Of a DNA stretch of 64,000 bases, positions 1 to 19,360 are shown piece by piece (the stretch's first letter is position 1; the number at the start of each line of letters is the position of its first letter). Position numbers and translations under genes: made by a program. This DNA comes from Paludibacter sp. (lineage in GTDB: Bacteria > Bacteroidota > Bacteroidia > Bacteroidales > Paludibacteraceae). The stretch covers positions 62,001-126,000 of the forward strand of contig NZ_WASO01000008.1 of the NCBI RefSeq assembly GCF_009712605.1, written 5' to 3'. The notes under the pieces are model-generated. The model was given only the letters and a program-made list of their open reading frames with translations, made no database searches and had not been told where the DNA came from.

Positions 1-316
1 CTACCAAACCCGACGTAATGGTTAAAAAGATCCGTGTATCGCCAAAAGTGTAAGCATTTGGTGCCGGATTCATTTCCAAGTAAAACTCAGGCTCTTCAAC
101 ACCCATTTTTCGACAAATGGGTGGCAACTTCTGATACAACTCCGGTAGCTGTTTTTCTGACAGCCGTATCTTCGAAGCCATGTTCACACCATACATGTAT
201 TGTTCTAATCCAGTTTTAAGGAATGCCTTTACAGCTGCCGAAAACCCGGGCACTGCTTCCATATTCCGGCGGGCTGCTTCGTCTTCGGGGTGGATAAAAT
301 CTTGGTAGTTGAGCAT
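1..316 (-). CDS. M48 family metallopeptidase, N-terminal part (cut by window edge)
   Basis: An open frame starts at the ATG at 316 and runs off the left edge, giving about 105 residues. The segment PNAYTFGDTRIFLTITSGLV near its end matches the conserved block just upstream of the HEXXH helix in M48 zinc proteases (PNAFxxG...TxGL). The catalytic HEXXH itself would lie beyond the window. The start is 7 bases after the stop of the nSTAND gene, so it is almost certainly the fourth gene of that operon. No signal peptide is visible in the N-terminus, which suggests a cytoplasmic or later membrane-anchored protease. Seen: the frame, the spacing and the motif. Inferred: zinc protease activity. Confidence 0.8.
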   Translation of the reverse strand, partial: MLNYQDFIHPEDEAARRNMEAVPGFSAAVKAFLKTGLEQYMYGVNMASKIRLSEKQLPELYQKLPPICRKMGVEEPEFYLEMNPAPNAYTFGDTRIFLTITSGLV

Positions 317-323
317 AGTTAGT

Positions 324-3300
324 TTACTTTAAAAGTTCACGTATTTTAGCGATATCCGGGTGAGTGATACCAGCCTTTTCTAGTTCATCAAAATCTCTCA
401 AAATATAATAATTAAAAGTTTTTGAAGGCTTTGGTGGATATGGTTGGTTCTTAAGTTCTAAATATATTTTTTTTGCATCTTTATATTTGTTCTGAAAAAG
501 TAATGCATGAGCTAAGTTGGTCTTTATCCATGTTTGTGTTGGATCAAGTTTCAGTGCAAGTATCGCATTTTTCTCAACTTTAGAAAATGATTTCTCAAAT
601 AATTGATACCATGACAAATTACCCAATGTTTGAACATACGATGAAAATAAATATTCATCATTTTTTAATAGATTATTATTTTGAGTACAAATATGTATTA
701 TTTGTTCACAATATAAAATTTTTTCTTTATCTGCACTTGTTGAGTCTACTGAGCAATTCCATAAATGTTGAATTACAGATTCAACGGTAGCCATAGCATC
801 ATATTCAGTATTTATTTTATTGCAAAACTTATTTATTCCAATTCTATCAACCCGTCCATTAAAATTGCTAATTTTAATGCAATTTTTATCGACACAAATA
901 TCTTGTTTAGAGCATGATATAATTAAACTAGCTGAAGATATGCCTGCCATCAACCCATATTTACCATCTAATTTAACCTTGTAGAAATTAACTTGTCCCG
1001 TTTTTTCATTATTTAGCTTAGCAATAGAATCATATTTACATTTTATAATTTCTACCTTATCAATCAGATTGTATATCCCTGTTGCTCCAGTTGAATTCTT
1101 AATTAAAACTTCCGAAAATTCATCATTAATGGGTATTATAGATTTATATAAGCATGGTAATATTTCAATTTTACCATTAATATCAAAAACGCCTTTATTA
1201 TTGGCAAAATTTGTAGTCACAATAATGTTTGGATATTGATAAGTTGATAATCTTTCTATTTTCTTGTATAAGCAAGGAATCTCATTACATTCTTCAGAAT
1301 GTAATTTGGAATTGGAAATGATGTTTAAAATGGGAACTGTATTTTTACATTTACTTTGACATGTCGAAATGTTAAAAATACCCCACTTCTTATTTTTACT
1401 AACCATTAACAGAGGAAGATCAAAGTCCTTTATATTATCGAATTCGACAGGGACTATCAGCCCTCTTCTGTCTCTTAACCCGTATTTACCTTTTGAATCT
1501 GTAATTAAATAAATACCTTGAGAGTTATAGCTCGTATTGAATTTTTTCACTAAAGCATATGCTGATTCAGAAAAATACACATTCCCTATTAAGAAAATAG
1601 GAATTAAGAAAAATGAAATAAAAAACAAAACTAATATTTTGCTTACGATTAATGACAACTGCTTTTTATTAATCTGTTTAATCACAATAAAAGATATTCC
1701 AATAAAAGACAACCAAATTAGTATATATATATATATCTTATCAAACACAAAGGTCTCAAATTGAGCACATACCAATATAACAAATAACGCCAACACTACT
1801 ATTGATGTAAATATAAGCGTTTTAACTTTGGGTTTATTTGCCGATTTATACATTAGTATTGAACAAAAAGAAGCTAAAATGAGAGGAGAACCATATATTG
1901 CAGAATATACATTTTTACATTTTAATCCTATTGTCATTGATATCAATAATAAAACAAATTGGACTAAGTAAATATTTCTATAATTCTTTATTACTTTAGG
2001 ACAAGTTACAAGGCTCAACCAAGTAACATTATTATTTGTCGATTTCCAATTAAAAAAAACTTTTCCCATGTAATAAAGCACTGGGAAAGTAAGAAATTCT
2101 AATATGATTAAGAAGCCAAAATAATCAGATATTTTAGTCCCTTCCCACGAGCTACATAAGATATAGTTATCAAAAAAAGCCATTAACTGTCTACATCCAA
2201 AACCTAATTTTCCAGTTAAACAGATTATAACAGAGACAAAACAAATAAACAAAACAGAGGCATATAACCCTTTTTTTTCGTTTGATAAGATGAGAAGACT
2301 TATATTGACACGAAAAATCAGCAAAAAGAATGTAACAAGAATATATGGAATAAAAGGAATGTGCGCATAAATTTCAGATGAGTCAAACGGGTAATCCAAA
2401 AATGTCTTTGTGAAAAAAAAAGACAATAACCCAATTATTCCCAAATCAACACCGACCAATATTTTTAAAAAACTACGTCTTTCTTTTTCTAACTCTCTTA
2501 TTTTTTTTTGTTCACTTCGGAGCTTCATTTCGGCATATCGCTTATCTCTTTTTCCTTTAGCCACTTTACACAATACATCATGCGTAAATTCAATGCGTTT
2601 GGTACCATCCCATTCATCAACATGAATTAATCTGTTTTGTTGCAAGGTGTCAATCTCGTCAGGAGTTACTCCATAATCAAAAGCATCCCCCAAAGCAATT
2701 GAATCCCTATACCCTTTTTTAGTCAGTAGCGAATTTTCTAAATACAGCATTGTTTTTTCAGAAACCAATGCCATCGTATTTTCATAATATTCCGAAATAA
2801 TGTTATCTCCAAATTTCTCAACCAAATCCAATGTTATCTCAGGCAATCCATCATCAAGTCTTTTCTTGTTTAACTCGTTACAAAAAAGAGACAGCAAAGC
2901 TGTTTCTACTGTTATTTCTGGAATTCCATCAATTTTAAAATTCGAATTATTGGTAACTTTTTTGATAATTTCAATCGCGACATTTTCGGAAACCATGCCT
3001 TTCGATGGTTTCATTATAATATCCATTGCCTGCTCTTCGTTAATTGACTGCAAACTAAACCGATTCCGACGTAGAGATGGTATATTTACAGCATACTCTT
3101 CTAATCTGGCAAGAAAATCTTCTCGAAGTGTAAGTACCAACCGATAATTGACTTTATCAGAGTATTCTTTTCGCAAATCATTATCATTGAGAAAATTTTT
3201 CAAGTATTGAGGCATTTTATTGTCACATAAGTCAGATAATTCCACAAAGAATTCCCGTACAGTTGATTTGTCTTTTGTTAATGTGAATATTTCCTCAAAT

Positions 3301-3725
3301 TGATCGATAACAATCAGTGGCGTAACTGGATAATTATCTTTATTCCAAAATTCATTTCCATGAAAGAATTCCCATAGACTTATTTTATCATCAAAAATGG
3401 GTTTAACTACATTATCGATTTCTCCACCAATTTCTTTCACTGAGCTGGTAATTTTCTCTATAATTTGTGCCGTATAATTTTCATTTGCACCATGACTTAA
3501 TCTAATATAGATTGGTAGAAAATTATTTTGTCTCGCAACCGTAAAGATACCGGCTTTAATTATTGAAGTCTTCCCTGTTCCAGAAGGTCCATAAACAACA
3601 GTTTGAGTATTATTAAAAATATCTCCAGACAATTCTCTGATTTCGGCTTCTCTTCCATAAAAAAGATGTGCATCTTTTTCCTCATACGACATAAGGCCTA
3701 ACCACGGTGATGTAGATGTGCTCAT
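324..3725 (-). CDS. nSTAND1-type NTPase with membrane helices, WG repeats and C-terminal TPRs
   Basis: A 1133-residue protein. The N-terminus has the nSTAND1 entry motif WLGLMSYEEKDAHLFYGRE, Walker A GPSGTGKTS (46-54) and Walker B PLIVIDQFEE (136-145), followed by STAND-like helical and winged-helix sequence to about residue 400. A short charged coiled coil (about 400-425) leads into several hydrophobic helices (about 430-760). Next come WG-type beta repeats (KYGLRDRRGL, KWGIF, KGVFDINGK, ATGIYN, KYGLMA; about 770-960) and TPR-like helices (about 1040-1115). STAND ATPases are nucleotide-driven oligomeric switches in which the C-terminal repeats usually sense the trigger. No separate effector domain is visible, so its partners (TIR, SIR2 and the M48 protease) may be the outputs. 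The next gene upstream, SIR2-TIR, ends 30 bases away. Confidence 0.85.
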   Translation of the reverse strand: MSTSTSPWLGLMSYEEKDAHLFYGREAEIRELSGDIFNNTQTVVYGPSGTGKTSIIKAGIFTVARQNNFLPIYIRLSHGANENYTAQIIEKITSSVKEIGGEIDNVVKPIFDDKISLWEFFHGNEFWNKDNYPVTPLIVIDQFEEIFTLTKDKSTVREFFVELSDLCDNKMPQYLKNFLNDNDLRKEYSDKVNYRLVLTLREDFLARLEEYAVNIPSLRRNRFSLQSINEEQAMDIIMKPSKGMVSENVAIEIIKKVTNNSNFKIDGIPEITVETALLSLFCNELNKKRLDDGLPEITLDLVEKFGDNIISEYYENTMALVSEKTMLYLENSLLTKKGYRDSIALGDAFDYGVTPDEIDTLQQNRLIHVDEWDGTKRIEFTHDVLCKVAKGKRDKRYAEMKLRSEQKKIRELEKERRSFLKILVGVDLGIIGLLSFFFTKTFLDYPFDSSEIYAHIPFIPYILVTFFLLIFRVNISLLILSNEKKGLYASVLFICFVSVIICLTGKLGFGCRQLMAFFDNYILCSSWEGTKISDYFGFLIILEFLTFPVLYYMGKVFFNWKSTNNNVTWLSLVTCPKVIKNYRNIYLVQFVLLLISMTIGLKCKNVYSAIYGSPLILASFCSILMYKSANKPKVKTLIFTSIVVLALFVILVCAQFETFVFDKIYIYILIWLSFIGISFIVIKQINKKQLSLIVSKILVLFFISFFLIPIFLIGNVYFSESAYALVKKFNTSYNSQGIYLITDSKGKYGLRDRRGLIVPVEFDNIKDFDLPLLMVSKNKKWGIFNISTCQSKCKNTVPILNIISNSKLHSEECNEIPCLYKKIERLSTYQYPNIIVTTNFANNKGVFDINGKIEILPCLYKSIIPINDEFSEVLIKNSTGATGIYNLIDKVEIIKCKYDSIAKLNNEKTGQVNFYKVKLDGKYGLMAGISSASLIISCSKQDICVDKNCIKISNFNGRVDRIGINKFCNKINTEYDAMATVESVIQHLWNCSVDSTSADKEKILYCEQIIHICTQNNNLLKNDEYLFSSYVQTLGNLSWYQLFEKSFSKVEKNAILALKLDPTQTWIKTNLAHALLFQNKYKDAKKIYLELKNQPYPPKPSKTFNYYILRDFDELEKAGITHPDIAKIRELLK

Positions 3726-3755
3726 AGAAACTATTTTATAATTTATAAAAGAGGA

Positions 3756-5039
3756 TTATCTCCTGATAGATCGAATTATTTTTTTGACGTTATCCTCGAA
3801 ATCACTTTTAAAGAAATCAACTTTTTGCAACGAGGAAAATTTCACAGGAATCAGTTCGTTTTGAATATTAATATCGTCTATAGTAATTGGAAAAATATAT
3901 GGAGATGGATTGATCCATTCAGATTGTTCAATACCCCAAGTCCATTCTCTTTTGAAAAATCTTCTTTCTGGGGTCATCACATGTTTTGAAAGAATAGGAA
4001 CGAACGCTTTACTTTTCTCAATGTTTTTCTTTATTACTTTCAGATATTCATCCGCAGGTTCCAATGCTCGTTTGTCAAACCACACTGTCACCCCTAATTT
4101 TCTGAATGTTTCAGCAACCAAAGATGCTGAATGTTCATCTTCACTGGCATAAGAAATGAACACATCCTTATATTCTGAGAGCAGTTCATCCGGATTGTCA
4201 ATTTTATATTGGACCCATCTTTCAGCCAATTCATTTATAAACTCTTCCGCAGGGATATACATTTGTGCATCTAACCGGGAGAGGTAGGCGATTAGATCAC
4301 TATCCATATTTGATTCTGCGATCATGCCAATTTTAGATTTAGGTGTAGATTGTGTCGAGAATTTCATAGAATGTAAGAAGAAACGAAAAAGCCAATTCGG
4401 GTAATTACAGCCAATAATAAGTAAGTATTTTTCCCTTAAGATATTCGATATTTTTTTGGGTTTGTAATTATCATTGAGCCAAAAGTGTAAAAATTCCAAG
4501 AGATCATCTTCTGTTAGCACATAAGAATGAGACTCATTGCTAGCCTTACCAAACATATGATATAATATAGGCTGATTTAATGTTTCAATATCTTGGCCAT
4601 TAGTTCTTTTCTCATATGATAACCGTTTAAAATTTCCTATACCCCATTTTTTTTCAAAAGACTTCGTGCAGATATTGTCAAAAGTCGTGGTGAGTACTAA
4701 TTTAAACTTATCAATATCAAGCAGCTTTGAAACAGATGGAGAAACATCAAAATCCGTTTCCTTAATTAGTTTATAAGTCTCATAGTAGGGATCCGAATCT
4801 ATTTCACGCCATTTAAGCATACATGACTGACATGTCAACTGTTCAAAATCTAACCCGGGAACATATTCAATATCAATAATCTCACACAACGATTTTACAA
4901 TATATTCGTAAAATGGTTGTTCTTGTCCATTTATTTTTATTTTAAGCAATTCATTGCCTAAAATCGGAACAACATTGCCCTTGTCAATTTCGGATAAAAG
5001 CTTCTCCCAACCTCTCTCATTAAGTTTATTTTTTGCCAT
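3756..5039 (-). CDS. SIR2-like domain fused to C-terminal TIR domain
   Basis: From the ATG at 5039 the protein has 427 residues. The longer reading from 5066 begins with GTG inside the upstream gene and is less likely. The N-terminal part looks like a SIR2-type Rossmann domain: VVPILGNELL, then TTTFDN (cf. TTNFD), YHMFGK (cf. the H-x-x-G catalytic region) and YLLIIGCNYPNW. The C-terminal part (about 290-390) is a TIR domain: DVFISYASEDEHSA, VWFDKRALEPADEY and FFKREWTWGIEQS, the last carrying a conserved W/E pair. Both domains belong to families that bind or consume NAD, so one chain could carry two NAD-directed activities. The ATG lies 11 bases after the stop of the TIR-PDZ gene, which indicates one operon. 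Fold calls come from motifs; activity is inferred. Confidence 0.82.
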   Translation of the reverse strand: MAKNKLNERGWEKLLSEIDKGNVVPILGNELLKIKINGQEQPFYEYIVKSLCEIIDIEYVPGLDFEQLTCQSCMLKWREIDSDPYYETYKLIKETDFDVSPSVSKLLDIDKFKLVLTTTFDNICTKSFEKKWGIGNFKRLSYEKRTNGQDIETLNQPILYHMFGKASNESHSYVLTEDDLLEFLHFWLNDNYKPKKISNILREKYLLIIGCNYPNWLFRFFLHSMKFSTQSTPKSKIGMIAESNMDSDLIAYLSRLDAQMYIPAEEFINELAERWVQYKIDNPDELLSEYKDVFISYASEDEHSASLVAETFRKLGVTVWFDKRALEPADEYLKVIKKNIEKSKAFVPILSKHVMTPERRFFKREWTWGIEQSEWINPSPYIFPITIDDINIQNELIPVKFSSLQKVDFFKSDFEDNVKKIIRSIRR

Positions 5040-5050
5040 GATATTTTGTT

Positions 5051-7036
5051 TTAATTTTCTTCCCACAAATTCATCATACCTACCAACACCTTACAATCCG
5101 GCGAAATAGTTTTGGTTAACACACTGAGCTTTCCTCCTGCAATACGAATGATTTTTAAAACATTAGGACTTGGCATTTCTTTCAATTTTGCATAGGTCTC
5201 AATACGATCAATAGCTCTACCTTTGCGTTCAATAATAACATCTCCGATTTTCAGAACGGGATGTGGTATATTATTATCGGTTCCTATCATTAAGATCCCT
5301 GTCGGTTCGAGCTTATGCTCGCCAACCAATTGATAATATCGTTTTACAGCAGGAATATACACCTTTACATTGGGATCAGTCTCTTTATTATACCCCTGGT
5401 ATATATCCAATCGCTTTTGCACTTCTGTAAAAACTTCTCTGGCGGATATAGTGGCTGTTATTGGCTCAACAGTATTGGGATCTTGACCCGCTTTTGAGGC
5501 TTCTTTCTTGAGTCGTTCAGTCTCAACTTTACATTTATTTTCTGCCAGTACCTGTGAATAGCCAAACTGAGCTAAATGGATGATCTTTCCCCACATCATC
5601 CCCTGCTCTTCGTTCTTACCGAACGAACATTTTGCTAGTATCCGTTTATAGGACTCCCGAAGTTCTTGTTTTTTGTTGTCAAGTTCATTTTTTTTTTGGA
5701 ATAAGGCTTGTTTCTTACCTTCCACCACCTTCTTTAAAGAATCAATCTTAGGTGATTTTATAACAGTAACCGGTATAATTTTTTTTCGATGCTTCAGTGA
5801 ATCCAATTGATTACTCATCCACGAGACAATTTTGTTTTCATCTCCAATAATTACCGAATATTTACTCAATAGTTCTTCGCATTTCTTCATGCTTTTTGCT
5901 TGCATAGCTTCCAATTCTGTCCGTGTTTTGGAATAATCCATCTCGTAGGTATATTTAGTGAGATTAGGCGCAAATTTAGCATACACATCTCTCACGTTCA
6001 CAGGCATTTCAAGAATGAGTTCATTAAAACTGAATATGCCGCAATTTATCATCTCTCTGTCCATCGAAGCCAAAATATCCATTGATTCGTCTAGTTGTAG
6101 TGGCCACGACATATCAGGGACTGACAACCAGTATTTCATTTTCATCAAATACTCTTTAGTTTGTTCCAAATCAGTATCAAACATCATCTTAGCACCTTTT
6201 ATATCTTCGGTACTAATACTATATTTAGCTAATAGCTCTTCGTGTGCAGGGGTCAGCTTTATGAGAGTATTATTGGCTGTGTCACTTATTTGTTTGAGTT
6301 TAAAATCAATAAATGTTATCAGTTCGCTTTTCAATCGGTTCTTGTACAATCGATCATTAGATTTTACATATTCAGCATGAAACTTTCTCCACTCAATATT
6401 GGCTTCATCAATAGTAGAAAGCAATATATTCCCTTTTCCAAAGCCAACAGCCATTTCCGACACAACTTCTTTACAAACCTGTTCTAATTGGATATATTCT
6501 CCGTGTTTTTTGTAAAAATGGATGAATAATAGAGCTGCTGTAAGCAATAAAATGGGGACAGTTGTAAATAGCAACTGCTTTCTAAATCGAGGCAATGTGA
6601 AGTGGCGTTTGCTGACAAGCATACTCCTAAGTTTGACCAAAAATGCTCCGAACAATTCTTGTGATGCCTCAATACCTTCATAATTTAACAATTCAGAAAT
6701 GTCGGCAGGAAGAGGAATAGTGGATCGGTTAAAATTTCGTAGAAAAATCGGAATGATATTTTTATTTGTTTTAATAGCATGAGCAACCTCTAATCTTACC
6801 CAATCATCATCATTGATACATCTTTCCAGACTATTTTCACCGAGTACTACAATAAAATCTTTGCAATAATCAATCTGATTATATATTTGCTCATTAAATT
6901 TACCCGAACGTAAATTTTCAATATCCATAAAAACCTTGTATCCAGCTTGTGTCAAACGATCATGAATAAGGTTTGCGGTTTCAAATCCACCTCCTTGTCG
7001 GCGGTAACTGATGAAAATGTCAAAATTTTGGTTCAT
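5051..7036 (-). CDS. TIR domain - transmembrane - coiled coil - PDZ-like protein
   Basis: A 661-residue protein and the first gene of the operon. Residues 5-130 are a TIR domain (FDIFISYRRQGGGFETANLI, YKVFMDIENLRSG, and DDWVRLEVAHA with the conserved W and putative catalytic E). One hydrophobic helix (about 153-175, TTVPILLLTAALLFIHFY) follows. A long helical region has a strong coiled coil near 430-470. The last 80 or so residues resemble a PDZ domain (GILMIGTDN, LKIGDVIIERKGRAID, VLKIIRIAGG). No signal peptide precedes the TIR, so it is probably cytoplasmic, and the helix would place the coiled-coil and PDZ part in the periplasm. That topology would suit an envelope-stress or infection sensor passing a signal inward. 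The domain order is seen; topology and role are inferred. Confidence 0.8.
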   Translation of the reverse strand: MNQNFDIFISYRRQGGGFETANLIHDRLTQAGYKVFMDIENLRSGKFNEQIYNQIDYCKDFIVVLGENSLERCINDDDWVRLEVAHAIKTNKNIIPIFLRNFNRSTIPLPADISELLNYEGIEASQELFGAFLVKLRSMLVSKRHFTLPRFRKQLLFTTVPILLLTAALLFIHFYKKHGEYIQLEQVCKEVVSEMAVGFGKGNILLSTIDEANIEWRKFHAEYVKSNDRLYKNRLKSELITFIDFKLKQISDTANNTLIKLTPAHEELLAKYSISTEDIKGAKMMFDTDLEQTKEYLMKMKYWLSVPDMSWPLQLDESMDILASMDREMINCGIFSFNELILEMPVNVRDVYAKFAPNLTKYTYEMDYSKTRTELEAMQAKSMKKCEELLSKYSVIIGDENKIVSWMSNQLDSLKHRKKIIPVTVIKSPKIDSLKKVVEGKKQALFQKKNELDNKKQELRESYKRILAKCSFGKNEEQGMMWGKIIHLAQFGYSQVLAENKCKVETERLKKEASKAGQDPNTVEPITATISAREVFTEVQKRLDIYQGYNKETDPNVKVYIPAVKRYYQLVGEHKLEPTGILMIGTDNNIPHPVLKIGDVIIERKGRAIDRIETYAKLKEMPSPNVLKIIRIAGGKLSVLTKTISPDCKVLVGMMNLWEEN

Positions 7037-7712
7037 AATATTTTGGGGAATGATGTTTTAATGTGGTTCAAAAAGAATGCTTTGATAACTATCCGATTTA
7101 TTACATACAAAATATGGATACCAAACTGCAGAATATTTATTATTTTAAACGAAAAAAAAATCGTTTTATTTACTAAAAATTTACACACGCCTGATTATCA
7201 ACAAAATAAATTTACAAACATTTTATAACAAAGTACGAGAAAAATCCCGATATATTAAAGCTATTTGAGACAAAACAATATCTTCTTGTATTAAAATTGA
7301 CAAAAACTCAATTTTTGTATATTAGTAAATGCAAGCCTATTTTACTTATCTTTTCTCATCTTCAAAAAGATGTTTGTCTGATGCGGCATATCTACTTATG
7401 TAAGTTAAATACCAGTTACATTTTTTTTAATCCTCAATTTTTGTCATTCATTGCCAAAGTTGCTGATCTTAGTTCTCTTTATACATCATCTATGTATCGG
7501 GGTTAACTGTTCAAATCAAGCACAAGTCTCCCCCTTCTTTTTCATCCAGTTCAGTTTGCTTTACTAACTCACTTTAGTGCATTTAGACCTTATGGAGTAT
7601 AAAACAAAACACCCCAATCTGAATATAATCAGATTGAGGTGTTTTGTTAGAACATTTTTCAAGAAACATGAAACCTTTGGACGTTGAAAAACATTATACT
7701 ACCCGTAGTTAT
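7037..7712. other. Intergenic region upstream of the TIR operon
   Basis: About 680 very AT-rich bases between the start of the TIR operon and the end of the restriction operon. It must contain the promoter of the minus-strand TIR operon, but I cannot place one confidently. Open frames here (for example 7297-7506, plus strand) have no recognisable composition or start signal. The only clear element is the long terminator hairpin at 7603-7648. Confidence 0.5.
7603..7648 (-). terminator. Long hairpin terminator of the restriction-like operon
   Basis: Two arms of about 20 bases (AACAAAACACCCCAATCTGA and its near-perfect complement) are separated by about 5 bases, with one mismatch. It lies about 65 bases after the last gene of the minus-strand operon (stop at 7713). 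Its A/T-rich outer arms give U-runs in either direction, so it may also insulate the TIR operon. Confidence 0.75.
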
Positions 7713-8627
7713 TTAGATAATCACAGCTTGTTTTACCAAACTCATTATATATTGAAGGTCTTTATCGCTATCTACACGTAATTCATAATCACCATTCAAA
7801 GAATGTCCTTTCAAAATAGACACATCTCGCATTAAATGCTTTGGATCATCCAATTTGCCAACTTTCAGGTTGACACTGATTTTGATTGTATTCTTTTGTA
7901 TTTCGATATCAGAAACATTCGTTCCGTTTTTCTTAAAAGCAATATACCATTTCTGCGGCTTTATTTCGATATCGGGAGAGAGATCCAAAATCGCCGATTT
8001 GAATTTTTCATAGAGTTCTACAGTCTCATCCGGTTTACCGCTCAAATGATCTTCCTCGGTATAGACTTTTATCTCTTTGGTGATCTCTTGTAGTTCGGTA
8101 TTACGATCCGTAATGGCTTTGATACTTTCGGCCGCCCCACTCTTTTTAATTTGATTGATAGAAACAATGCCACCTTCGTATTGTTTGACTTCCCATAGTT
8201 CAATAGCAATATCCTTGAAATTGGTGGCTTCCCTCTGATTCTCGGTAAAACCCTGAGAAACAAAGGCAACACGGGTTTGCGACCAGTCTACATCATCTCG
8301 TTTCAAAGTTTTTTTCAATCCTTCGTTATATTCCAGAATAAAATCAGCTTTGTTTTGTAGCATCAGGTTAAGATAAGTAAACCCCTGATCTACAACACTA
8401 TTATTACGTTCCCGCTTGTATTCAATAATCACAAATGATTTGGTTTGCGGATCAAAGCCAAGAGTATCGATTCGTTTGTTTTTAATGGAAAATTCAGACT
8501 TTACCATTTCCAAACCCATAATCATCGACAAATTGTTTTCAAATAATCGTTGAATCTCCTTTTCAAGCTTGAAAGGAAGTTCTTTGATTAAATCAAGCAT
8601 TGATTGTGTCTGTTTAAAAAGAGCCAT
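7713..8627 (-). CDS. PD-(D/E)XK nuclease-like protein with DUF5655-type C-terminus
   Basis: 304 residues. The N-terminal half has a nuclease-type core: RIDTLGFD (D54), then SFVIIEYKRER (E69, K71), the D...ExK arrangement of PD-(D/E)XK enzymes, with an upstream helix EKEIQRLFENNL typical of restriction-like folds. The C-terminal half (about 195-300, ETVELYEKFKSAILDL, PQKWYIAFKKNGTNV) resembles the DUF5655 domain found in many bacterial restriction-associated proteins. It is the last gene of the operon: its start is 1 base from the stop of the OLD-like gene. The likely role is DNA cleavage or assistance to cleavage within the defence module. No helicase or methylase motif is present. Confidence 0.7.
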   Translation of the reverse strand: MALFKQTQSMLDLIKELPFKLEKEIQRLFENNLSMIMGLEMVKSEFSIKNKRIDTLGFDPQTKSFVIIEYKRERNNSVVDQGFTYLNLMLQNKADFILEYNEGLKKTLKRDDVDWSQTRVAFVSQGFTENQREATNFKDIAIELWEVKQYEGGIVSINQIKKSGAAESIKAITDRNTELQEITKEIKVYTEEDHLSGKPDETVELYEKFKSAILDLSPDIEIKPQKWYIAFKKNGTNVSDIEIQKNTIKISVNLKVGKLDDPKHLMRDVSILKGHSLNGDYELRVDSDKDLQYIMSLVKQAVII

Positions 8628-8628
8628 A

Positions 8629-10353
8629 TTACAACAGATTAAATCGATTTATCAACACTTCCAATAAAGGGACAAAGCCATTAAAATAGTCATCAGAAAA
8701 ACTTGATAAATAGTTTGTCTCAATATGTTTTTTGATTCGATCATGAGTTGCACCCTGATTGTTAGATTTAAACTCTCTAAATTTACACTTAGCATGAATA
8801 TCAGCTACTATACTACCATAACTCTCTTTTGCAAACATGTCTTCTATAAAAAAATCATTTTCAACTCCTTTCTCGTACTCCTTAGTATAGTCTTCCTGAT
8901 AAAAAACATAATCTAACTTTGGATATTCCTCTTTGAATTTCATTATCGCAGTTGCTCCATCTCTACCTGGTTTATCAAAATCATATATATAGAGAATTTT
9001 ATTTGCATTCAAATGCAATGCTTTCACCACATCATCAAAAAAACTTTTTGTATTTCCGGCACTTCCTTGAGGTATGAAGGACAATTCATCCAGTTTATAA
9101 TATTTAGAATCACGTATACCAAATATTTGAATTGCCTTTCTAATATATTTAATATCGTACGTACCTTCTACAATTACGATTTTTTTAGATGTAGCTATAA
9201 ATGCACCTTCAATATAATTGATTTCGCCTCCAGTCAATTTATTAATCTGACATATCTTGTCTGCATTTTCCAACTTGCCGTTGTTAAGAAAAATCAGATT
9301 TTTAAATTTCATTTTATTCGCAAGAATGGAAGAATGTGTAGTAACCAAGCTACATCTATTAGGATTATCGATTAATCTTATAAGCTCATTTTTTCTAGAA
9401 ATATGAATATGAGAATCCGGCTCATCAAATAGACATAAGCTATTTTCGTTTGCTATCACATCAGTTATACATTTAATCAGTATGAGTTTCTTTTCTCCCT
9501 CGCTCAACTCTCTTAATGTAATTCCATTGAAAGATACATTGATTTTTTCAAATAGTTTTTTATCCTTATCACTTCCAACTGCATGCAATAGGAAAAAAAG
9601 TTTTCTTACTTTTTTTGTGTTATCAGGATTAGATATAAAAATAATATCTTGAATATTATCAAATGTCAGAAATGAGTTCCCCTGACTCTCCTTTATTATG
9701 CGAATCAGATTAAGTGCATCATTTTGAGCTTCGGTGCCAGTTTCTGTTATTTTCACATAGTTCTTTCGTCTGGTATCATAATTAGCAGGGAAATTAAATC
9801 TTATTTCTACATCAGAGATATTGGATACATTCAATAGATTTTTAATATATTCTTTCGAATTATCATGGCAAAGCAGCGTAACTAATGCAATCTCCCAAAC
9901 ATATTTGTTTATATACACTAATTTGTGTTTCTCTTGGGTAGCCCCCTTTTTTATTTTGCTTATATAGCTAAAGTAAAACGTTGAATAAACATCAGTCCAT
10001 AATCTTAGCTCATCTCCACTATAACATGCTATAATTTCATCCGGCAGATAATTACTAATATTTGAACCAATAATGCGATTACGTAAATCCCCTGATTCCT
10101 TTGTTAATCTGACAACTCGATCTATTACATTAACTTCATACTGTCTTATCTCATACGTTATGTTGTAACTGAAATTAATTGCAAACCTTCTTGGGCTATG
10201 AAGGTTTGCAAATATATAGCTTATTGCTTCTAAGATATTGCTTTTACCAGAACCATTTACCCCAATAAAACTAACATAATTAGAAGTATTTGATAAATCT
10301 AAATCTACATCTAAATTTTTATATCCAGAGATTTTTAATTTCAGTATCCTCAT
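8629..10353 (-). CDS. OLD-type AAA ATPase with C-terminal TOPRIM domain
   Basis: 574 residues. Residues 1-340 form an SMC/RecF-like ATPase: Walker A GVNGSGKS (31-38), signature LSEGEKKLI (about 287) and Walker B LCLFDEPDSHIH (about 310). After about residue 385 comes a TOPRIM domain with IVIVEGTYD (metal-binding E) and LYIYDFDKPG (the DxD pair). This is the architecture of OLD-family nucleases, as in GajA and AriA defence proteins. It sits between hsdS and the DUF5655 nuclease, 6 bases from hsdS and 1 base from the nuclease gene, so it is an integral operon member. It could supply ATP-dependent DNA cleavage or sensing in place of the missing HsdR. Activity is inferred from the motifs. Confidence 0.8.
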   Translation of the reverse strand: MRILKLKISGYKNLDVDLDLSNTSNYVSFIGVNGSGKSNILEAISYIFANLHSPRRFAINFSYNITYEIRQYEVNVIDRVVRLTKESGDLRNRIIGSNISNYLPDEIIACYSGDELRLWTDVYSTFYFSYISKIKKGATQEKHKLVYINKYVWEIALVTLLCHDNSKEYIKNLLNVSNISDVEIRFNFPANYDTRRKNYVKITETGTEAQNDALNLIRIIKESQGNSFLTFDNIQDIIFISNPDNTKKVRKLFFLLHAVGSDKDKKLFEKINVSFNGITLRELSEGEKKLILIKCITDVIANENSLCLFDEPDSHIHISRKNELIRLIDNPNRCSLVTTHSSILANKMKFKNLIFLNNGKLENADKICQINKLTGGEINYIEGAFIATSKKIVIVEGTYDIKYIRKAIQIFGIRDSKYYKLDELSFIPQGSAGNTKSFFDDVVKALHLNANKILYIYDFDKPGRDGATAIMKFKEEYPKLDYVFYQEDYTKEYEKGVENDFFIEDMFAKESYGSIVADIHAKCKFREFKSNNQGATHDRIKKHIETNYLSSFSDDYFNGFVPLLEVLINRFNLL

Positions 10354-10359
10354 GTCGAA

Positions 10360-11733
10360 TTAATTGTATCCAAATATTTCTTTTTCAAATTCTTCCAGAG
10401 CTAACATAATATTAATATTCGCTTCAGATTTTAAATTTATGATTAGCCCTCTATCTCCTTTAATTTTTTCAACAATCTCTTCTTGAAATTGCAAAGATTC
10501 TGGCACAGGCATAATGATTCTATTTAGATTTCCTACACCTAATTCAGTTTGTTTAGTTGCTTGTGCAGATTTTAAATCATTTACCTGACTTTGCCCAAAT
10601 GAACTATTGAAAAGCTCCACAAATAATTCAGGATTCATTATGTTTGAGTCTATTCGTAGCAATAACATATGACTATCATATAATAACCCCTGATACTCAT
10701 TTTTGATATAAGTTGCTCGTCCAATTGTACCTTCGCCGGTAGAATTAATTAAAATATCTCCTTCCTTAGTAAAAAAAGACTCATCTATAGATGAGAACCA
10801 TTTGTCATCTACATTCTTTGCAAAAGAGACATCTAATAAATTCCATCGATTACATTTTTGATTTAGAATAAAGACGGGTGATTCATTCTTATAAACAGGA
10901 CTTTTACCTCGGAATACTTCTATGGCAAGCTTAACAACAGGAAAGTTTTTGAATTCCGATCTATTACTTTTTCCAATACTTTTGATTTTATCAAAACCCC
11001 ATTCTGTTATATCGTTGAAAGAATAAAATTGAAGCCCTTTGATTTTAGTAGATTTCCTATTTTTTTCTATGCCTAATTTCTCAAATAAGTATTCTTCTAT
11101 CCCTATCTCCAATTCTTCCGCCTTTGTCTCCAATTCTTTCGCTCTATCAATTTTCTCATTATAAGCATTTACAATGCGTTCTTGGTCTGCAAGTGAAGGA
11201 AGTGGAATTTTTTGCTTTAGGAAAAGATCTACATCCATCCTTTGCCGATTGGTTGTACCACTACTGCAACTCTGTGCAAAGTCAATAAAGGCGTTTGTCG
11301 TTGTAATCAGAACCAAAAACTCCGGTAATATTTTTGATTTATCAACATCAAAAAGAGGAAAATCATTAGTAACTACAGCCCCATCTAAACCGTCAGAAAT
11401 TAACCCAAAGGCTCCGTTTCTTGCATCAATTTTTGAAAGTATAAATTGGCCTCCCTTAGCAATAAATTGTTTTTTTGTACCAATATCAATTCCTTTTATA
11501 GTTTTAGTATCTCTTTCTTCAACTCCACCATTTCTTATCTTTATGCGGATTCTTCTATAAATTGTATTATCTTCTATATCAACAACATTCCTGCTTTTTT
11601 TCAAAAAATCACCAATAGGTACTAAAATGAACTTCTTATTGTATGCAACCTTTTTGTCTAGCAAGCTTTGAACACTCCAAGTCTCCAATTGACTAATAGT
11701 AATTAGAGTCAAATATGTTTTTACATCATTCAT
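10360..11733 (-). CDS. hsdS: Type I restriction-modification specificity subunit (HsdS)
   Basis: From the ATG at 11733 the protein has 457 residues. Longer readings begin inside hsdM. It has the two-repeat layout of HsdS: target-recognition region 1 (to about 185, ending PLPSLADQERIV), a conserved helix (NAYNEKIDRAKELETKAEELE), target-recognition region 2, then a second helix (QFQEEIVEKIKGDRG). The motif KIPLPSLADQ is typical of HsdS central regions. The ATG lies 1 base after the hsdM stop, so translation is coupled. It would give the methylase, and any associated nuclease, a bipartite recognition sequence. The intact length suggests a functional subunit. Confidence 0.88.
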   Translation of the reverse strand: MNDVKTYLTLITISQLETWSVQSLLDKKVAYNKKFILVPIGDFLKKSRNVVDIEDNTIYRRIRIKIRNGGVEERDTKTIKGIDIGTKKQFIAKGGQFILSKIDARNGAFGLISDGLDGAVVTNDFPLFDVDKSKILPEFLVLITTTNAFIDFAQSCSSGTTNRQRMDVDLFLKQKIPLPSLADQERIVNAYNEKIDRAKELETKAEELEIGIEEYLFEKLGIEKNRKSTKIKGLQFYSFNDITEWGFDKIKSIGKSNRSEFKNFPVVKLAIEVFRGKSPVYKNESPVFILNQKCNRWNLLDVSFAKNVDDKWFSSIDESFFTKEGDILINSTGEGTIGRATYIKNEYQGLLYDSHMLLLRIDSNIMNPELFVELFNSSFGQSQVNDLKSAQATKQTELGVGNLNRIIMPVPESLQFQEEIVEKIKGDRGLIINLKSEANINIMLALEEFEKEIFGYN

Positions 11734-11734
11734 C

Positions 11735-13993
11735 TTACTTCCCATAAAATTTCTGAGGTTCACCCACATTACCATTCACAACGGGGATACGGTAAATATG
11801 ATTTTCGGGGGTAACGTCGTAGATTACGGTTTCGAACTTATTTTGCCATAGCTTTTTCCCTTCTGCATACCCCCGAAATTCTACGGCAAGTGGTTTCAGT
11901 TCATTTTCTATTTCAGCTCCGGTACTGCTGATGCCTGCTTTCTCTACTTCAGCTATCGGTATTTCGTAATCGAAATCACGCTTTATCTGTGCCTTAATTT
12001 CAGCTGCGATTTTCTCTTCTATTTGTTTCAATTCGGCTTTCAGTGCTTTTTTATCGTTTACAGATGCCGTTTTATCTTTGAGCTTTTCCTCAATAGTGTG
12101 AAGCTGTTCTGCATAGTTTGATTTAATTTCTTTATCGGCTTTTCTGCTTATTTTCTTCCAGTTGGTAGCTTCTTCCTCCGTAAATTTCTTAAAGAAAAGC
12201 AAACTTGGTTTTACCGTCGCTCCGCTGGCAATAAATACATCCTGAGGAATAGATGTAATCAGCAATATTTTTGCCTTGCTTTCCACATAATCGCGCACTT
12301 TTTGCAGATTGGAGTTATTCAATACCCCTTCGGGCAATACAATGCCCATACGTCCACCGGGCTTTAGCAATCGTAAACAGCGTTCGATAAAAAGCACTTC
12401 TGTCAATCCGCTCATCTTACCCACATCAAAAAGGTCAATCAACGGTTTTCCTATATTGTCGTTTACCTGCTTCAAGGCTTTATCGTATGCTTCGCCATAG
12501 CGTTCGCGATATTTCGCGATACGCGCAGCATCGGTATATTTATCAGCTTCTGTAATCTTCAGGCTTTTCTCCACCCGCGCTCCGAAAGGAGGATTAGTTA
12601 GAATCACATCAAAACGGTTTTCAAAAATTCCGTTCACATTGAGTAAACCGTCATTATGGTGTACTCCTCCATGCCCGTCACCGTGCATAATCATATTCAT
12701 TTTGGCGGTGCGACTCATCCGGGGGTTAGCATCAGTCCCGAAGATACAGTCATACGAAAGAGTACGTAATCGGCTTTTATTGTTATTAATATCCAATTCG
12801 TAGTTCAACTTATTGAACAGGTCGGTTACTTTTTCGTCGATCTCCGCTCTCTTTTTCTCGGGCATTGATTCATACGATTCCGTATAAAAATCGGTCTTTA
12901 TTTTGTCTTTTGCTCGATGTATCTCTTCCTCAATTTTTGACCGCACATATTCGAACGCTTTAATCAAAAATCCACCGCTACCACAGCAAGGATCACAGAT
13001 AGTTTCACCCTCCTGCGGATCAAGAATATCCACCATAAAATCCACAATGGTACGGGGAGTAAAAAACTGACCCAATTCACCACGAAATGTTTTACCAAGG
13101 AACTGTTCAAAGGCAATCCCTTTCACATCGTCCGACGTAGTAGAGAGGTTATAAATCTCCAACTCTTTTACAATAGCCTCGAAGCTGTTTTCCCGAATCC
13201 GTATGATTTCATTGGGTTCAAACAGATCATCATCTTTGAAATCCTCTTTGGTTTGTTCAAATAAGAATTGATAAAACTCTGCCCCATCTTTTGGCCGGTA
13301 TTTATTATAGCTCTCCTTAGCTTTCTTAAACTCCTCGCTTGAAAAGATTTGAGCTCCCGTATTCTGGCGCTCGTAGCGTATCTTAATGAAGAGAATCTTG
13401 CTGATTTCATCAAAGGAAGCTTCAGGTGATAGTTTATCGTTATTGCGGATAATATTATGACATTTGAACAACAGCTTTGAGAATTCATCACGGGTAAAGG
13501 CTTTGGTTTGTTTCAACAATTCATCCACCTTTTTGCTGTTATTGACTACATCCGCTTTCGGAATATCAATAATTTCATCCAGGCGCTTAGGAATCTCACC
13601 TTTAATAACCCTGAAAATACGGGTTTCTTTAAGGTTAGTGGTAACAAAAAAATCGGCTCCCGCCCATGATGCATAATTATACCCCTGAAAGTAATCTTCT
13701 TCTCGGATTGTAATATGTTCAGCCTTGCATTCTACTACAATAATGGGACTTTTGCTTTCGGCTTTCTCAATTGCATTCCGCCATACCACAATATCGGCGC
13801 GTGCACTTCCTTGTCCTCGTTGGGAGTTGCTGACCTGTATTTCCTGATCCATCTGATCGAGAGAAAATCCGTAATAATTCACCAAACGACAAATATAGGT
13901 TTGGCGAACTCTTTCTTCGGGTTTCTCCACTAACCATTTATCTTTCAATGGAGCAAATATTTTACTATCCTTACTTAGTACCTCTAATGGCAT
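11735..13993 (-). CDS. hsdM: Type I N6-adenine methylase (HsdM) with fused N-terminal PD-(D/E)XK domain
   Basis: 752 residues, first gene of the operon. Residues 1-150 resemble the N-terminal nuclease domain of type I R subunits: ADIVVW (D67) and PIIVVECKAEH (E88, K90), the D...ExK site, with an upstream EER helix. A helical N6_N-like region follows, then the methylase core: GQFFTPRTIVDFM, motif I DPCCGSGGFL and motif IV LTNPPFGAR. The C-terminal 120 residues are coiled-coil rich. With HsdS it should form a methyltransferase, and the fused nuclease could cleave unmodified DNA in the manner of type IIG enzymes. No DEAD-box translocase gene is present in the operon, which is unusual for a type I locus. 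Confidence 0.85.
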   Translation of the reverse strand: MPLEVLSKDSKIFAPLKDKWLVEKPEERVRQTYICRLVNYYGFSLDQMDQEIQVSNSQRGQGSARADIVVWRNAIEKAESKSPIIVVECKAEHITIREEDYFQGYNYASWAGADFFVTTNLKETRIFRVIKGEIPKRLDEIIDIPKADVVNNSKKVDELLKQTKAFTRDEFSKLLFKCHNIIRNNDKLSPEASFDEISKILFIKIRYERQNTGAQIFSSEEFKKAKESYNKYRPKDGAEFYQFLFEQTKEDFKDDDLFEPNEIIRIRENSFEAIVKELEIYNLSTTSDDVKGIAFEQFLGKTFRGELGQFFTPRTIVDFMVDILDPQEGETICDPCCGSGGFLIKAFEYVRSKIEEEIHRAKDKIKTDFYTESYESMPEKKRAEIDEKVTDLFNKLNYELDINNNKSRLRTLSYDCIFGTDANPRMSRTAKMNMIMHGDGHGGVHHNDGLLNVNGIFENRFDVILTNPPFGARVEKSLKITEADKYTDAARIAKYRERYGEAYDKALKQVNDNIGKPLIDLFDVGKMSGLTEVLFIERCLRLLKPGGRMGIVLPEGVLNNSNLQKVRDYVESKAKILLITSIPQDVFIASGATVKPSLLFFKKFTEEEATNWKKISRKADKEIKSNYAEQLHTIEEKLKDKTASVNDKKALKAELKQIEEKIAAEIKAQIKRDFDYEIPIAEVEKAGISSTGAEIENELKPLAVEFRGYAEGKKLWQNKFETVIYDVTPENHIYRIPVVNGNVGEPQKFYGK

Positions 13994-18085: not shown

Positions 18086-19351
18086 CTATAATATCCTATC
18101 TGTATTCATTTTTAATTTTATGATATTTACTGCCTTTTGCTTCTTTTCATCGACCACTTTTGCATAAATCTGTGTGGTTTTCACATTTGTATGTCCTAAC
18201 ATTTTGGATACTGTATAAATATCAGTTCCTCCGGCTAATTGCAATGTAGCATAAGTATGGCGAAAGCAATGAAATGTGATTTTTCGTGTAATCCCCGCTG
18301 ATTCAATCCAACGTTTTAGTGGAACCGAAATCCATGAAGGATCTGGTAAATCCTCAAAAACAGGCTGATCTGGTTTTCGAGGATCTCCACATAAAGAATA
18401 GGCCTGTTCTGAAATTGGCATGTATTCGACTCCCTTTGTCTTTTGCTGGGTAAAATTTAGTCTATAATTATCTCCATTCTTTTGAATCTCTGCCCATTTC
18501 AATTTCTGTATATCACAATGTCGCAAGCCAGTTAAAGCAGAAAAGAGAGCTGCTCGTTTTAGTATAGGACGATCACAAGGCGTTTCTGCCAGCAAATTTA
18601 ATTCCTCTACAGTGAGATGTTCCCTACGACTTTCCTGTTCCTGAATTCCTTTTATCTTAGCTGATATGTCAACAGAAAAATAACCATCAATAAATGCCTG
18701 TTTTAATCCTGCTTTAAATATGCTAAAATAAGTAGCGGCTGTATTACGAGATACTATACCTTCCTTGTTTCCGCCACATGGAGCTGAAAGCATAAAATAG
18801 CGAATTTCTTCAGCCTTCCCCATGTTAATTTGGGAAAACAAAAGCGGTTTTCCTCCGGTAAAGATTTTTAGCAGTTCGACTACCCTATTCCAATTCACAA
18901 GAATTGAATCGGAACTATTCCTATGTTTGCTGATTGTTACGTTTTGCAAGTATGTTATAAAATCCGTTTGTTGTAATTGCTGCATTTCTTCTAACTCAGC
19001 CTCCTTTTCCGTGTATAAATCTGCATTGTCATATTCCTTTTGCCGGAGCATACGTACACCATCTGCATAAATACATGCCTCCTGATCCAAATTACTTTTA
19101 CATTGAATAATCCCATTGAGATCTCTTTTAGGTTTGAACGTCGACGTTCCATCCGACAGCGTTCTGGCCGTACGAGTTTTGTCCCACACCGGAGTCGTTA
19201 TTATTCTGTTTAGAGTTTCAATGATTCGCTGTGGTTTATCACTACCATTTGTAAACACAGGATAACTCTCAAGAATCAAATACCACTCTTTACGATATTC
19301 TGATTTACGTAATTTGACGGTACATTTGGTTTTGGCAAGCTTCTTTTTCAT
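18086..19351 (-). CDS. Tyrosine recombinase / integrase
   Basis: 421 residues from the ATG at 19351 (a TTG precedes it by one codon). The N-terminal arm-type DNA-binding part (KSEYRKEWYLILESYPVF) and SAM-like domain are followed by the catalytic domain, with R in ALTGLRHCDI (about 278), HxxR in HCFRHTYA (about 362-365), H in MLGHTN (about 387) and the nucleophile Y in TTQIYAKV (about 397). All catalytic residues are present. This is the Bacteroides mobile-element type. It is 6-9 bases from its neighbours on both sides and probably integrates and excises the island whose right end lies near 19910-20040. Confidence 0.92.
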   Translation of the reverse strand: MKKKLAKTKCTVKLRKSEYRKEWYLILESYPVFTNGSDKPQRIIETLNRIITTPVWDKTRTARTLSDGTSTFKPKRDLNGIIQCKSNLDQEACIYADGVRMLRQKEYDNADLYTEKEAELEEMQQLQQTDFITYLQNVTISKHRNSSDSILVNWNRVVELLKIFTGGKPLLFSQINMGKAEEIRYFMLSAPCGGNKEGIVSRNTAATYFSIFKAGLKQAFIDGYFSVDISAKIKGIQEQESRREHLTVEELNLLAETPCDRPILKRAALFSALTGLRHCDIQKLKWAEIQKNGDNYRLNFTQQKTKGVEYMPISEQAYSLCGDPRKPDQPVFEDLPDPSWISVPLKRWIESAGITRKITFHCFRHTYATLQLAGGTDIYTVSKMLGHTNVKTTQIYAKVVDEKKQKAVNIIKLKMNTDRIL

Positions 19352-19360
19352 CAATCTAAT

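What the first reader, a model, noticed from the sequence alone, without database searches (positions are those of the whole stretch)
1..7036. Four-gene TIR-PDZ / SIR2-TIR / nSTAND1 / M48-protease operon: candidate undescribed conflict system
Seen: four minus-strand genes with gaps of 11, 30 and 7 bases. Products in order: TIR-TM-coiled-coil-PDZ, SIR2-TIR, nSTAND1 ATPase with membrane helices, WG and TPR repeats, and an M48 peptidase. Known: TIR and SIR2 domains can consume NAD or make signals in phage defence; STAND ATPases are sensor switches. Inference: a membrane-linked sensor triggers NAD depletion or proteolysis. The combination of two TIRs, SIR2, STAND and protease is not one I can name as a described system.
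Basis: partly seen in the sequence, partly recalled or inferred. Interest (0 to 1): 0.9.

Follow-up and report, generated by a model that had tools for sequence, protein, structure and literature searches.

The report
TIR enzymes wired to ryanodine-type channels
A bacterial gene cluster that looks like an immune system puts enzymes of the kind that turn NAD into signal molecules beside predicted ion channels and a predicted gene switch that carry the ligand-binding domain of animal ryanodine receptors, which suggests a pathway from an NAD-derived signal to an ion channel in bacteria.

Summary
The four genes are real, but the window edge cuts the cluster. It continues on the same strand with Zn-ribbon, TIR-FISUMP, RCK membrane protein, RyR-domain, ECF sigma, C39-peptidase-RyR (predicted anti-sigma), WG and TPR-protease genes. 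Of 19 sampled genomes with the SIR2-TIR gene, only this one has all four; SIR2-TIR and an nSTAND1 homologue are neighbours in 17. SIR2 as a working NADase is not supported: its catalytic His is lost in all 20 homologues inspected. The TIR of TIR-PDZ is SARM1-like. The most informative part lies outside the window: RyR domains (PF02026), whose phage members bind or cleave 2'/3'cADPR (preprint PMC13232231), here keep the published ligand residues and sit in or beside channel-like tandem-RCK proteins; 13 of 13 Bacillota partner subunits carry TVGYGD. A TIR gene lies within 10 kb of 15 of 34 such RCK loci, in several phyla. Best reading: a TIR product gates an RyR-bearing ion channel and, here, an RyR-bearing anti-sigma factor. 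Nothing was tested at the bench, and a key preprint (Yirmiya 2025) could not be read.

The parts
5051..7036 (-). TIR-TM-coiled-coil-PDZ protein, 661 aa; first gene of the cluster
6617..7036 (-). SARM1/TIR-1-like TIR domain; the Glu of DWVRLE aligns with that of DWVHKE in TIR-1 (that this is the catalytic Glu is recalled)
   Evidence: phmmer against PDB: 19 of 19 sequences at E <= 0.001 are SARM1, TIR-1 or a chimera of them, best E 1.1e-21; Foldseek ranks 1-35 the same
5099..5302 (-). PDZ-like domain (approximate limits)
   Evidence: profile hits to DegP, E 6.5e-5; beta-rich in the model
3756..5066 (-). SIR2-TIR protein, 436 aa (ATG start would be 5039)
4176..5009 (-). SIR2-like half with catalytic Asn and His replaced: probable pseudo-sirtuin
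   Evidence: alignment of 12 homologues and profile match to KomC
3759..4175 (-). TIR half; Glu374 invariant in 12 of 12 aligned homologues
324..3725 (-). nSTAND1 ATPase with several TM helices, weak WG and TPR repeats, 1133 aa
2..316 (-). M48 peptidase with C-terminal Zn-ribbon, first 105 codons only; continues to the left of the window (296 aa in all)
7037..7712 (-). intergenic stretch upstream of TIR-PDZ, presumed promoter region of the cluster (inference)
   Evidence: gap between genes

Best explanation
A modular, membrane-linked TIR signalling system. nSTAND1 and the repeat and PDZ or FISUMP parts are the likely infection or damage sensors (inferred). One or more TIR domains (SARM1-like TIR of TIR-PDZ, TIR of SIR2-TIR, TIR-FISUMP) convert NAD into an ADP-ribose-type signal (inferred from the conserved Glu). 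RyR domains (PF02026) bind that signal (inferred from the residues that bind 2'/3'cADPR in phage RyDEP). The RyR-bearing tandem-RCK membrane protein, probably with the 91-aa RyR protein, is a ligand-gated ion channel that upsets ion gradients or potential and stops growth (inferred). A second RyR on a C39-peptidase anti-sigma factor lets the same signal free the ECF sigma factor and raise expression (inferred). Shown here: gene content, recurrence of modules, linkage of TIR with RyR/RCK genes in several phyla, pocket residues, channel-like predicted fold, TVGYGD in the Bacillota subunits, loss of the SIR2 active site. Not shown: any ligand, product, current or phage protection.
For: The own cluster contains three TIR genes, RCK, RyR, ECF sigma and C39-RyR. 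The RyR quartet H, W(+3), H(+25), D(+42), which is the spacing of RyDEP H75/W78/H100/D117 (PMC13232231), is complete in 17 of 19 standalone and 21 of 27 fused RyR domains found by a local profile; at the corresponding columns of 31 RCK proteins H, W and D are kept in 31 and the second H in 28. A phage RyR protein aligns at the same columns. A TIR gene lies within 10 kb of 15 of 34 RCK loci, 12 with all genes between on one strand, and of 12 of 26 RyR loci of the order outside the own genome (11, L023 by position; L079, L136, L142 without), against 259 TIR_2 matches in 295 genomes (summed; expectation). Fibrobacterota contig L097: RCK-RyR fusion, SIR2-TIR, nSTAND1 and a further TIR gene in a row. 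L150, same family as the window: SIR2-TIR, nSTAND1, two more genes, a protein matching the C-terminal part of the RCK family, and RyR on one strand. Bacillota partner subunits: TVGYGD in 13 of 13; Pfam Ion_trans_2 plus RyR over cut-off in 3 of 3 scanned. MscS-type channel beside RyR in L075 and L080. AlphaFold model of L097 (mean pLDDT 79.3): best Foldseek match is the CASTOR gating ring, E 5.9e-5. Sigma gene directly upstream of the C39 gene in 9 of 9 loci; one of these has an HxxxCxxC N-terminus.
Against: The RyR ligand rests on one preprint about phage proteins; in the parts read no bacterial RyR protein was assayed. About half of the RyR or RCK loci have no TIR gene within the DNA held; some sit beside a nucleoside hydrolase instead (L109, L112). 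The Bacteroidota RCK proteins show no TVGYGD, so their pore is unproven. Foldseek TM-scores to CASTOR are low (0.30/0.43), and ranks 4-9 and most of the rest are S-adenosylhomocysteine hydrolases and other Rossmann enzymes, with potassium channels only from rank 10, E 4.6e-3. Gaps of 267, 88, 138 and 107 bases between outer genes leave room for several transcripts. Defence-island clustering inflates proximity. Most related loci with a name are MAGs. The local RyR, RCK and TIR profiles were built from some of the sequences that they then scored. The TIR hit in L086 comes from a genome in which Pfam TIR_2 finds none among those listed, and that in L104 is not among the 25 Pfam families shown.
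Confidence: 0.5

Rival explanations
1. RyR domains are the off switch: like phage RyDEP they bind or cleave the TIR signal to prevent self-poisoning, and the RCK protein senses NAD(H) or ion state rather than the signal.
For: All four RyDEP residues, including the catalytic pair, are kept in 17 of 19 standalone RyR proteins; the second RCK Rossmann of the own protein has GFGQIG, typical of dinucleotide binding (recalled).
Against: RyR domains are also fused to channel pores (L105, L109, L113), to RCK proteins and to a C39 protein beside a sigma gene, where an input domain is expected; 6 of 8 tested phage homologues bound and the homologues tested did not cleave (PMC13232231).
Confidence: 0.2
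2. Plain abortive infection by NAD depletion: nSTAND1 senses phage, TIR domains destroy NAD, the other genes are accessory.
For: TIR Glu invariant in 12 of 12 aligned SIR2-TIR proteins; SIR2-TIR plus nSTAND1 is the most constant pair, 17 of 19 genomes, and 13 of these 19 show no RyR or RCK gene in the DNA held.
Against: Does not explain the recurrent RyR, RCK, channel and sigma parts; the SIR2 half has lost its active site.
Confidence: 0.15
3. An envelope or redox stress regulon rather than defence: ECF sigma/anti-sigma, M48 (HtpX-like), PDZ, WG, TPR-protease, with TIRs as stress enzymes.
For: ECF sigma over the NCBIfam cut-off; M48 closest to HtpX models though far below their cut-offs; membrane helices in several products.
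Against: Patchy presence (7 of 150 family genomes; none of the 7 other same-genus genomes listed), low-GC stretch next to a recombinase and defence-like genes, TIR/STAND content.
Confidence: 0.1
4. Coincidence: several independent systems packed into one defence island.
For: Variable gene order and subsets; gaps over 80 bases between some outer genes.
Against: The same modules recur together in different orders and phyla (L020, L028, L081, L097, L099, L100, L103, L137, L150), some with overlapping reading frames.
Confidence: 0.05

Closest known systems
Thoeris (TIR makes cADPR isomers that switch on an effector)
   Same: TIR genes in one cluster with a predicted ligand-gated effector; ThsB_TIR (PF08937) hits in related loci L074 and L080
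   Different: No SLOG or macro domain in the ten main products; the predicted receptor is an RyR domain on RCK or Ion_trans_2 proteins; nSTAND1, M48, sigma/anti-sigma present
Phage RyDEP and RyR-domain sponges (PMC13232231)
   Same: PF02026 domain with the same four ligand residues at the same spacing
   Different: In bacterial genomes, near TIR genes and fused to channels and a C39 protein, instead of phage-encoded evasion proteins
Animal ryanodine receptor (R12 repeats) and the SARM1/CD38-cADPR axis
   Same: RyR domain linked to an ion channel, beside a SARM1-like TIR; the own C39-RyR matches RyR1-3 chains in PDB
   Different: Channel is RCK or Ion_trans_2 type; ion and ligand unknown
KomC and other SIR2 NADases
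   Same: SIR2-like by profile (KomC E 1.2e-6, ThsA E 0.0036)
   Different: Catalytic His and mostly Asn replaced
nSTAND1 conflict systems (Kaur et al. 2021, PMC8195603, passages read)
   Same: nSTAND1 ATPase with TIR, FGS-like and repeat parts
   Different: No mention of RyR, M48, RCK or TrkA in the main text searched (term counts 0)
CASTOR and Slo-type RCK channels
   Same: Predicted tandem RCK gating ring
   Different: C-terminal RyR-like domain; no TVGYGD in the Bacteroidota members

Membership tests
Thoeris | TIR protein with the conserved Glu | tested here: met
Thoeris | described effector (SIR2-SLOG ThsA, TM-macro, caspase-like; list partly recalled) | tested here: not met
   no SLOG, macro or caspase domain in the Pfam scan of the ten main products; NCBIfam ThcB4 at most 33.3 bits against cut-off 220 in the own cluster
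Thoeris | TIR product is a cADPR isomer or related signal that activates the effector | not testable with these tools
   needs biochemistry
RyR domain family PF02026 | score over the curated cut-off | tested here: met
   108.8 and 83.5 bits against 27.4
RyR domain family PF02026 | ligand residues H75, W78, H100, D117 of RyDEP | tested here: met
   own RyR and C39-RyR carry all four at the published spacing; the RyDEP sequence itself was not aligned
RCK-gated ion channel | tandem RCK fold after a membrane pore region | tested here: inconclusive
   model and Foldseek of homologue L097 support it at modest TM-scores; own protein only by homology (30-37% identity within its close family)
RCK-gated ion channel | K+ selectivity filter TVGYG | tested here: inconclusive
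   present in 13 of 13 Bacillota partner subunits; not seen in the 7-sequence alignment of Bacteroidota RCK proteins, own one included
SIR2 NADase | catalytic Asn and His | tested here: not met
   of 12 aligned homologues His 0, Asn 2; no His in 8 more
ECF sigma / anti-sigma pair | adjacent sigma and anti-sigma genes | tested here: inconclusive
   sigma 45.7 bits over cut-off 42.9 and directly upstream of the C39 gene in 9 of 9 loci; that the C39 protein is the anti-sigma is inferred
Known PADLOC system | system-specific model hits | tested here: not met
   generic TIR hits and weak hits to mad8, mad3 and AbiQ models

The most novel reading that the evidence does not exclude
Bacteria run a complete pathway from NAD to an ADP-ribose-type signal to an RyR-gated channel, in which a SARM1-like TIR makes the signal and an RyR-RCK (in Bacillota a K+-selective) channel is opened by it: a prokaryotic counterpart, and perhaps source, of the cADPR-ryanodine receptor axis, with an RyR-controlled protease anti-sigma as its transcriptional amplifier.
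Probability: 0.35. Interest if true: 0.95.

Novelty: new variant of a known kind. Interest (0 to 1): 0.85.

Why it matters
How cADPR acts on ryanodine receptors has long been debated (recalled), and the preprint PMC13232231 only raises the R12 domain as a possible site. A bacterial cluster that places a SARM1-like TIR beside small RyR-bearing, channel-like proteins would give a compact, testable system for that question, would add ligand-gated ion channels and a sigma switch to the outputs of TIR immunity, and would explain why phages carry RyR sponges and an RyR glycosidase.

Tried and rejected
SIR2 as NAD-consuming effector: rejected on active-site loss. Four-gene set as the unit: rejected, 1 of 19 genomes. 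Naming by PADLOC/NCBIfam: no system fits. PDB sequence search with the own RCK protein found nothing at E <= 1, so its fold rests on a homologue. The model of TIR-PDZ (3 sequences, pTM 0.36) only settles the TIR part; its Foldseek list shows no PDZ among the 50 rows. C39 N-terminal query in the own genome found only itself. SIR2-TIR of L097 on plasmids: one distant hit, 28.7% identity, in a 2.6-Mb Paraburkholderia caribensis record. The 340-aa gene in L028 is FGE-sulfatase-like.

Papers: PMC13232231 read in parts 1, 2 and 5 of 6 plus passages; PMC8195603 and PMC13142454 passages; PMC7159879 and PMC9503650 only term counts, 0 hits; all others search listing only. Ten full-text searches showed in their listings no report of a bacterial TIR-RyR-channel cluster; only the listed rows were looked at. 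Not held, hence unread: Yirmiya et al. 2025 (10.64898/2025.12.03.692087), Burroughs 2015 and 2020, PMC13243611.

Counting limits: the ORF caller found no RyR ORF in L023 and L079 and no RCK ORF in L106 (35 loci fetched, 34 counted); L094, L095, L096, L098 appear to be the same contigs as L083, L081, L082, L084. The SIR2-TIR alignment holds 12 of the 14 order genomes; the two left out (L027, L031) resemble L026 and L030. The p-values assume independence and a mean genome of 3.5 Mb (my assumption) and are not corrected for phylogeny. The genome-level overlap of SIR2-TIR and RyR is 6 genomes (hypergeometric p 3.8e-4, 2.0e-3 without the own genome). RyR domains were located by their H..W motif inside profile hits; every one of the 46 hits had one.

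Full report
Observation. The window is G000:C6:62001-126000. The four genes are present as described, with the stated gaps if SIR2-TIR starts at ATG 5039. Pfam confirms TIR, SIR2_2, nSTAND1 and M48; PDZ is supported by a profile of three homologues.

The cluster is larger than the window. Left of the window, same strand, in transcription order after M48 (L005; window position = L005 position minus 10000): Zn-ribbon protein 163 aa, TIR-TM-FISUMP 416 aa, a gap of 267 bases, membrane TrkA_N/RCK protein 688 aa, RyR-only protein 91 aa (frames overlap by 23 bases), gap 88, ECF sigma 188 aa, C39-peptidase-RyR-Zn-ribbon 373 aa (frames overlap by 14 bases), gap 138, WG 341 aa, gap 107, TPR-aspartyl protease 682 aa. 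TrkA_N and C39 are below Pfam's cut-offs. The outer genes may be separate transcripts. GC is 34% in the cluster and 41% in the two flanks measured. Right of it lie DUF5655, AAA_21, genes that I read as HsdS and HsdM (no Pfam run on these two) and a tyrosine recombinase at 18086-19354.

Recurrence. SIR2-TIR homologues occur in 14 of 295 genomes of the order and 7 of 150 of the family (two shared), 19 genomes in all; none of the 7 other same-genus genomes listed has one. An nSTAND1 homologue (BLAST to the own protein) is the next gene called in 17 of 19; in L026 and L027 it is not, and in L026 the next gene is NuoF-like. In one of the 17 (L151) it is split into two ORFs. All four reported genes occur together only in the own genome. 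G242 has TIR-PDZ, SIR2-TIR, nSTAND1, RCK and RyR; G208 has sigma, C39-RyR, M48, a small gene, Zn-ribbon, SIR2-TIR, nSTAND1, WG in that order. RyR or RCK genes were found in the neighbourhood held in 6 of 19 (G000, G208, G028, G237, G242, G411), not in the other 13, some of which are cut by contig ends.

The RyR-RCK theme. PF02026 occurs in 25 of 295 order genomes and in 0 of 14 control genomes. In many loci a standalone RyR gene of about 95-135 codons lies beside a membrane protein of the RCK family with a C-terminal RyR-like domain, or beside an MscS-type channel (L075, L080). A scan of 84,980 species genomes with an alignment of five RCK proteins gave 35 loci in Bacteroidota, Fibrobacterota, Spirochaetota and Bacillota. 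A TIR gene lies within 10 kb in 15 of 34 loci with an RCK ORF, 12 with all genes between on one strand. For RyR loci of the order outside the own genome it is 12 of 26: 11 of the 22 with a called RyR ORF, plus L023 by position, with L079, L136 and L142 without. The background is 259 TIR_2 matches in 295 genomes, about 0.006 expected per locus under a uniform model; a 20-fold island enrichment still leaves p near 1e-5 to 1e-6, though loci are not independent. L097 (Fibrobacterota) has RCK fused to a further RyR domain, then SIR2-TIR, nSTAND1 and a WD40-bearing gene with a TIR hit that is below Pfam's cut-off.

Channel evidence. The model of L097 RCK-RyR (mean pLDDT 79.3) shows an N-terminal helical region, two Rossmann domains and a helical RyR-like domain; the extra C-terminal RyR is of low confidence. 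Foldseek ranks the CASTOR gating ring first (E 5.9e-5, TM 0.30/0.43); then come S-adenosylhomocysteine hydrolases and other Rossmann enzymes, with potassium channels from rank 10 (E 4.6e-3). In Bacillota the neighbouring RyR protein (504-585 aa, one cut at 444) is a channel subunit: TVGYGD in 13 of 13 (several are close relatives), Ion_trans_2 and RyR both over cut-off in 3 of 3 scanned.

Ligand evidence. [quoted passage not shown] of eight further phage homologues six bind and none is reported to cleave. The same residues at the same spacing are complete in 17 of 19 standalone and 21 of 27 fused RyR domains found by a local profile, and at the corresponding alignment columns of 31 RCK proteins H, W and D are invariant and the second H is kept in 28. 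The RyDEP sequence itself was not aligned; a Pectobacterium phage RyR protein was, and shares the columns.

TIR and SIR2. The TIR of TIR-PDZ matches only SARM1 and TIR-1 among PDB sequences at E <= 0.001 (19 of 19, best E 1.1e-21), with the DWVxxE Glu aligned. In SIR2-TIR the TIR Glu is invariant in 12 of 12 aligned homologues, while the SIR2 His before the Gly (H146 in KomC) is Phe or Leu in 12 of 12 and the Asn is kept in 2 of 12; 8 further homologues, by eye, also lack the His.

Sigma arm. C39 homologues lie directly downstream of a sigma gene in 9 of 9 loci (L005, L020, L136-L142); 4 of 9 carry RyR. L138 has an HxxxCxxC N-terminus, as in zinc anti-sigma factors (recalled). L137 has sigma, C39, M48, a small gene, Zn-ribbon, RCK in a row.

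Mechanism. Most likely: sensors (nSTAND1, repeats, PDZ/FISUMP) trigger TIR conversion of NAD to an ADP-ribose-type signal; RyR domains receive it; the RCK-RyR channel changes ion flux and stops growth; C39-RyR releases sigma. Each functional step is inference. The standalone RyR may instead be a buffer or a signal-cleaving reset.

Novelty. TIR-to-nucleotide-to-effector is a known principle (Thoeris). RyR-bearing channels and an RyR-bearing anti-sigma as receivers in bacterial TIR clusters did not appear in the listings of ten full-text searches, but Yirmiya et al. 2025 and the Burroughs papers could not be read. I therefore rate it a new variant of a known kind, with the stronger reading in the section on the most novel reading.

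Noticed in passing
window 51031-51831: A further TIR gene (266 aa, TIR_2 69.1 bits) away from the cluster.
   Followed up: no
window 7713-13993 and 18086-19354: DUF5655, AAA_21, genes that read as HsdS and HsdM, and a tyrosine recombinase next to the cluster: looks like a mobile defence island.
   Followed up: partly
L109:8876-13345 and L112:8708-13384: TVGYGD-RyR and RCK-RyR channel-like genes directly followed by an inosine-uridine nucleoside hydrolase instead of a TIR gene.
   Followed up: no
L075:6887-9389 and L080:6803-9373: MscS-type channel gene beside an RyR-like protein and a standalone RyR gene; L080 also has a ThsB-like TIR downstream.
   Followed up: partly
phage records MT837259.1, MT836850.1, MT835673.1: Metagenomic 'Bacteriophage sp.' records with RyR proteins 54-58% identical to a bacterial one, and one with an RCK-RyR-like stretch; may be phage, or bacterial contigs.
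   Followed up: no
L089:5693-12409: TIR protein whose C-terminus resembles EgtB/SenA enzymes, a SLATT_1 protein and an 881-aa RyR protein in one strand run.
   Followed up: no
L105:12843-15794: TIR-Sel1 protein with an N-terminal Zn-ribbon and a TPR-S hit beside the K+ channel-RyR genes.
   Followed up: no
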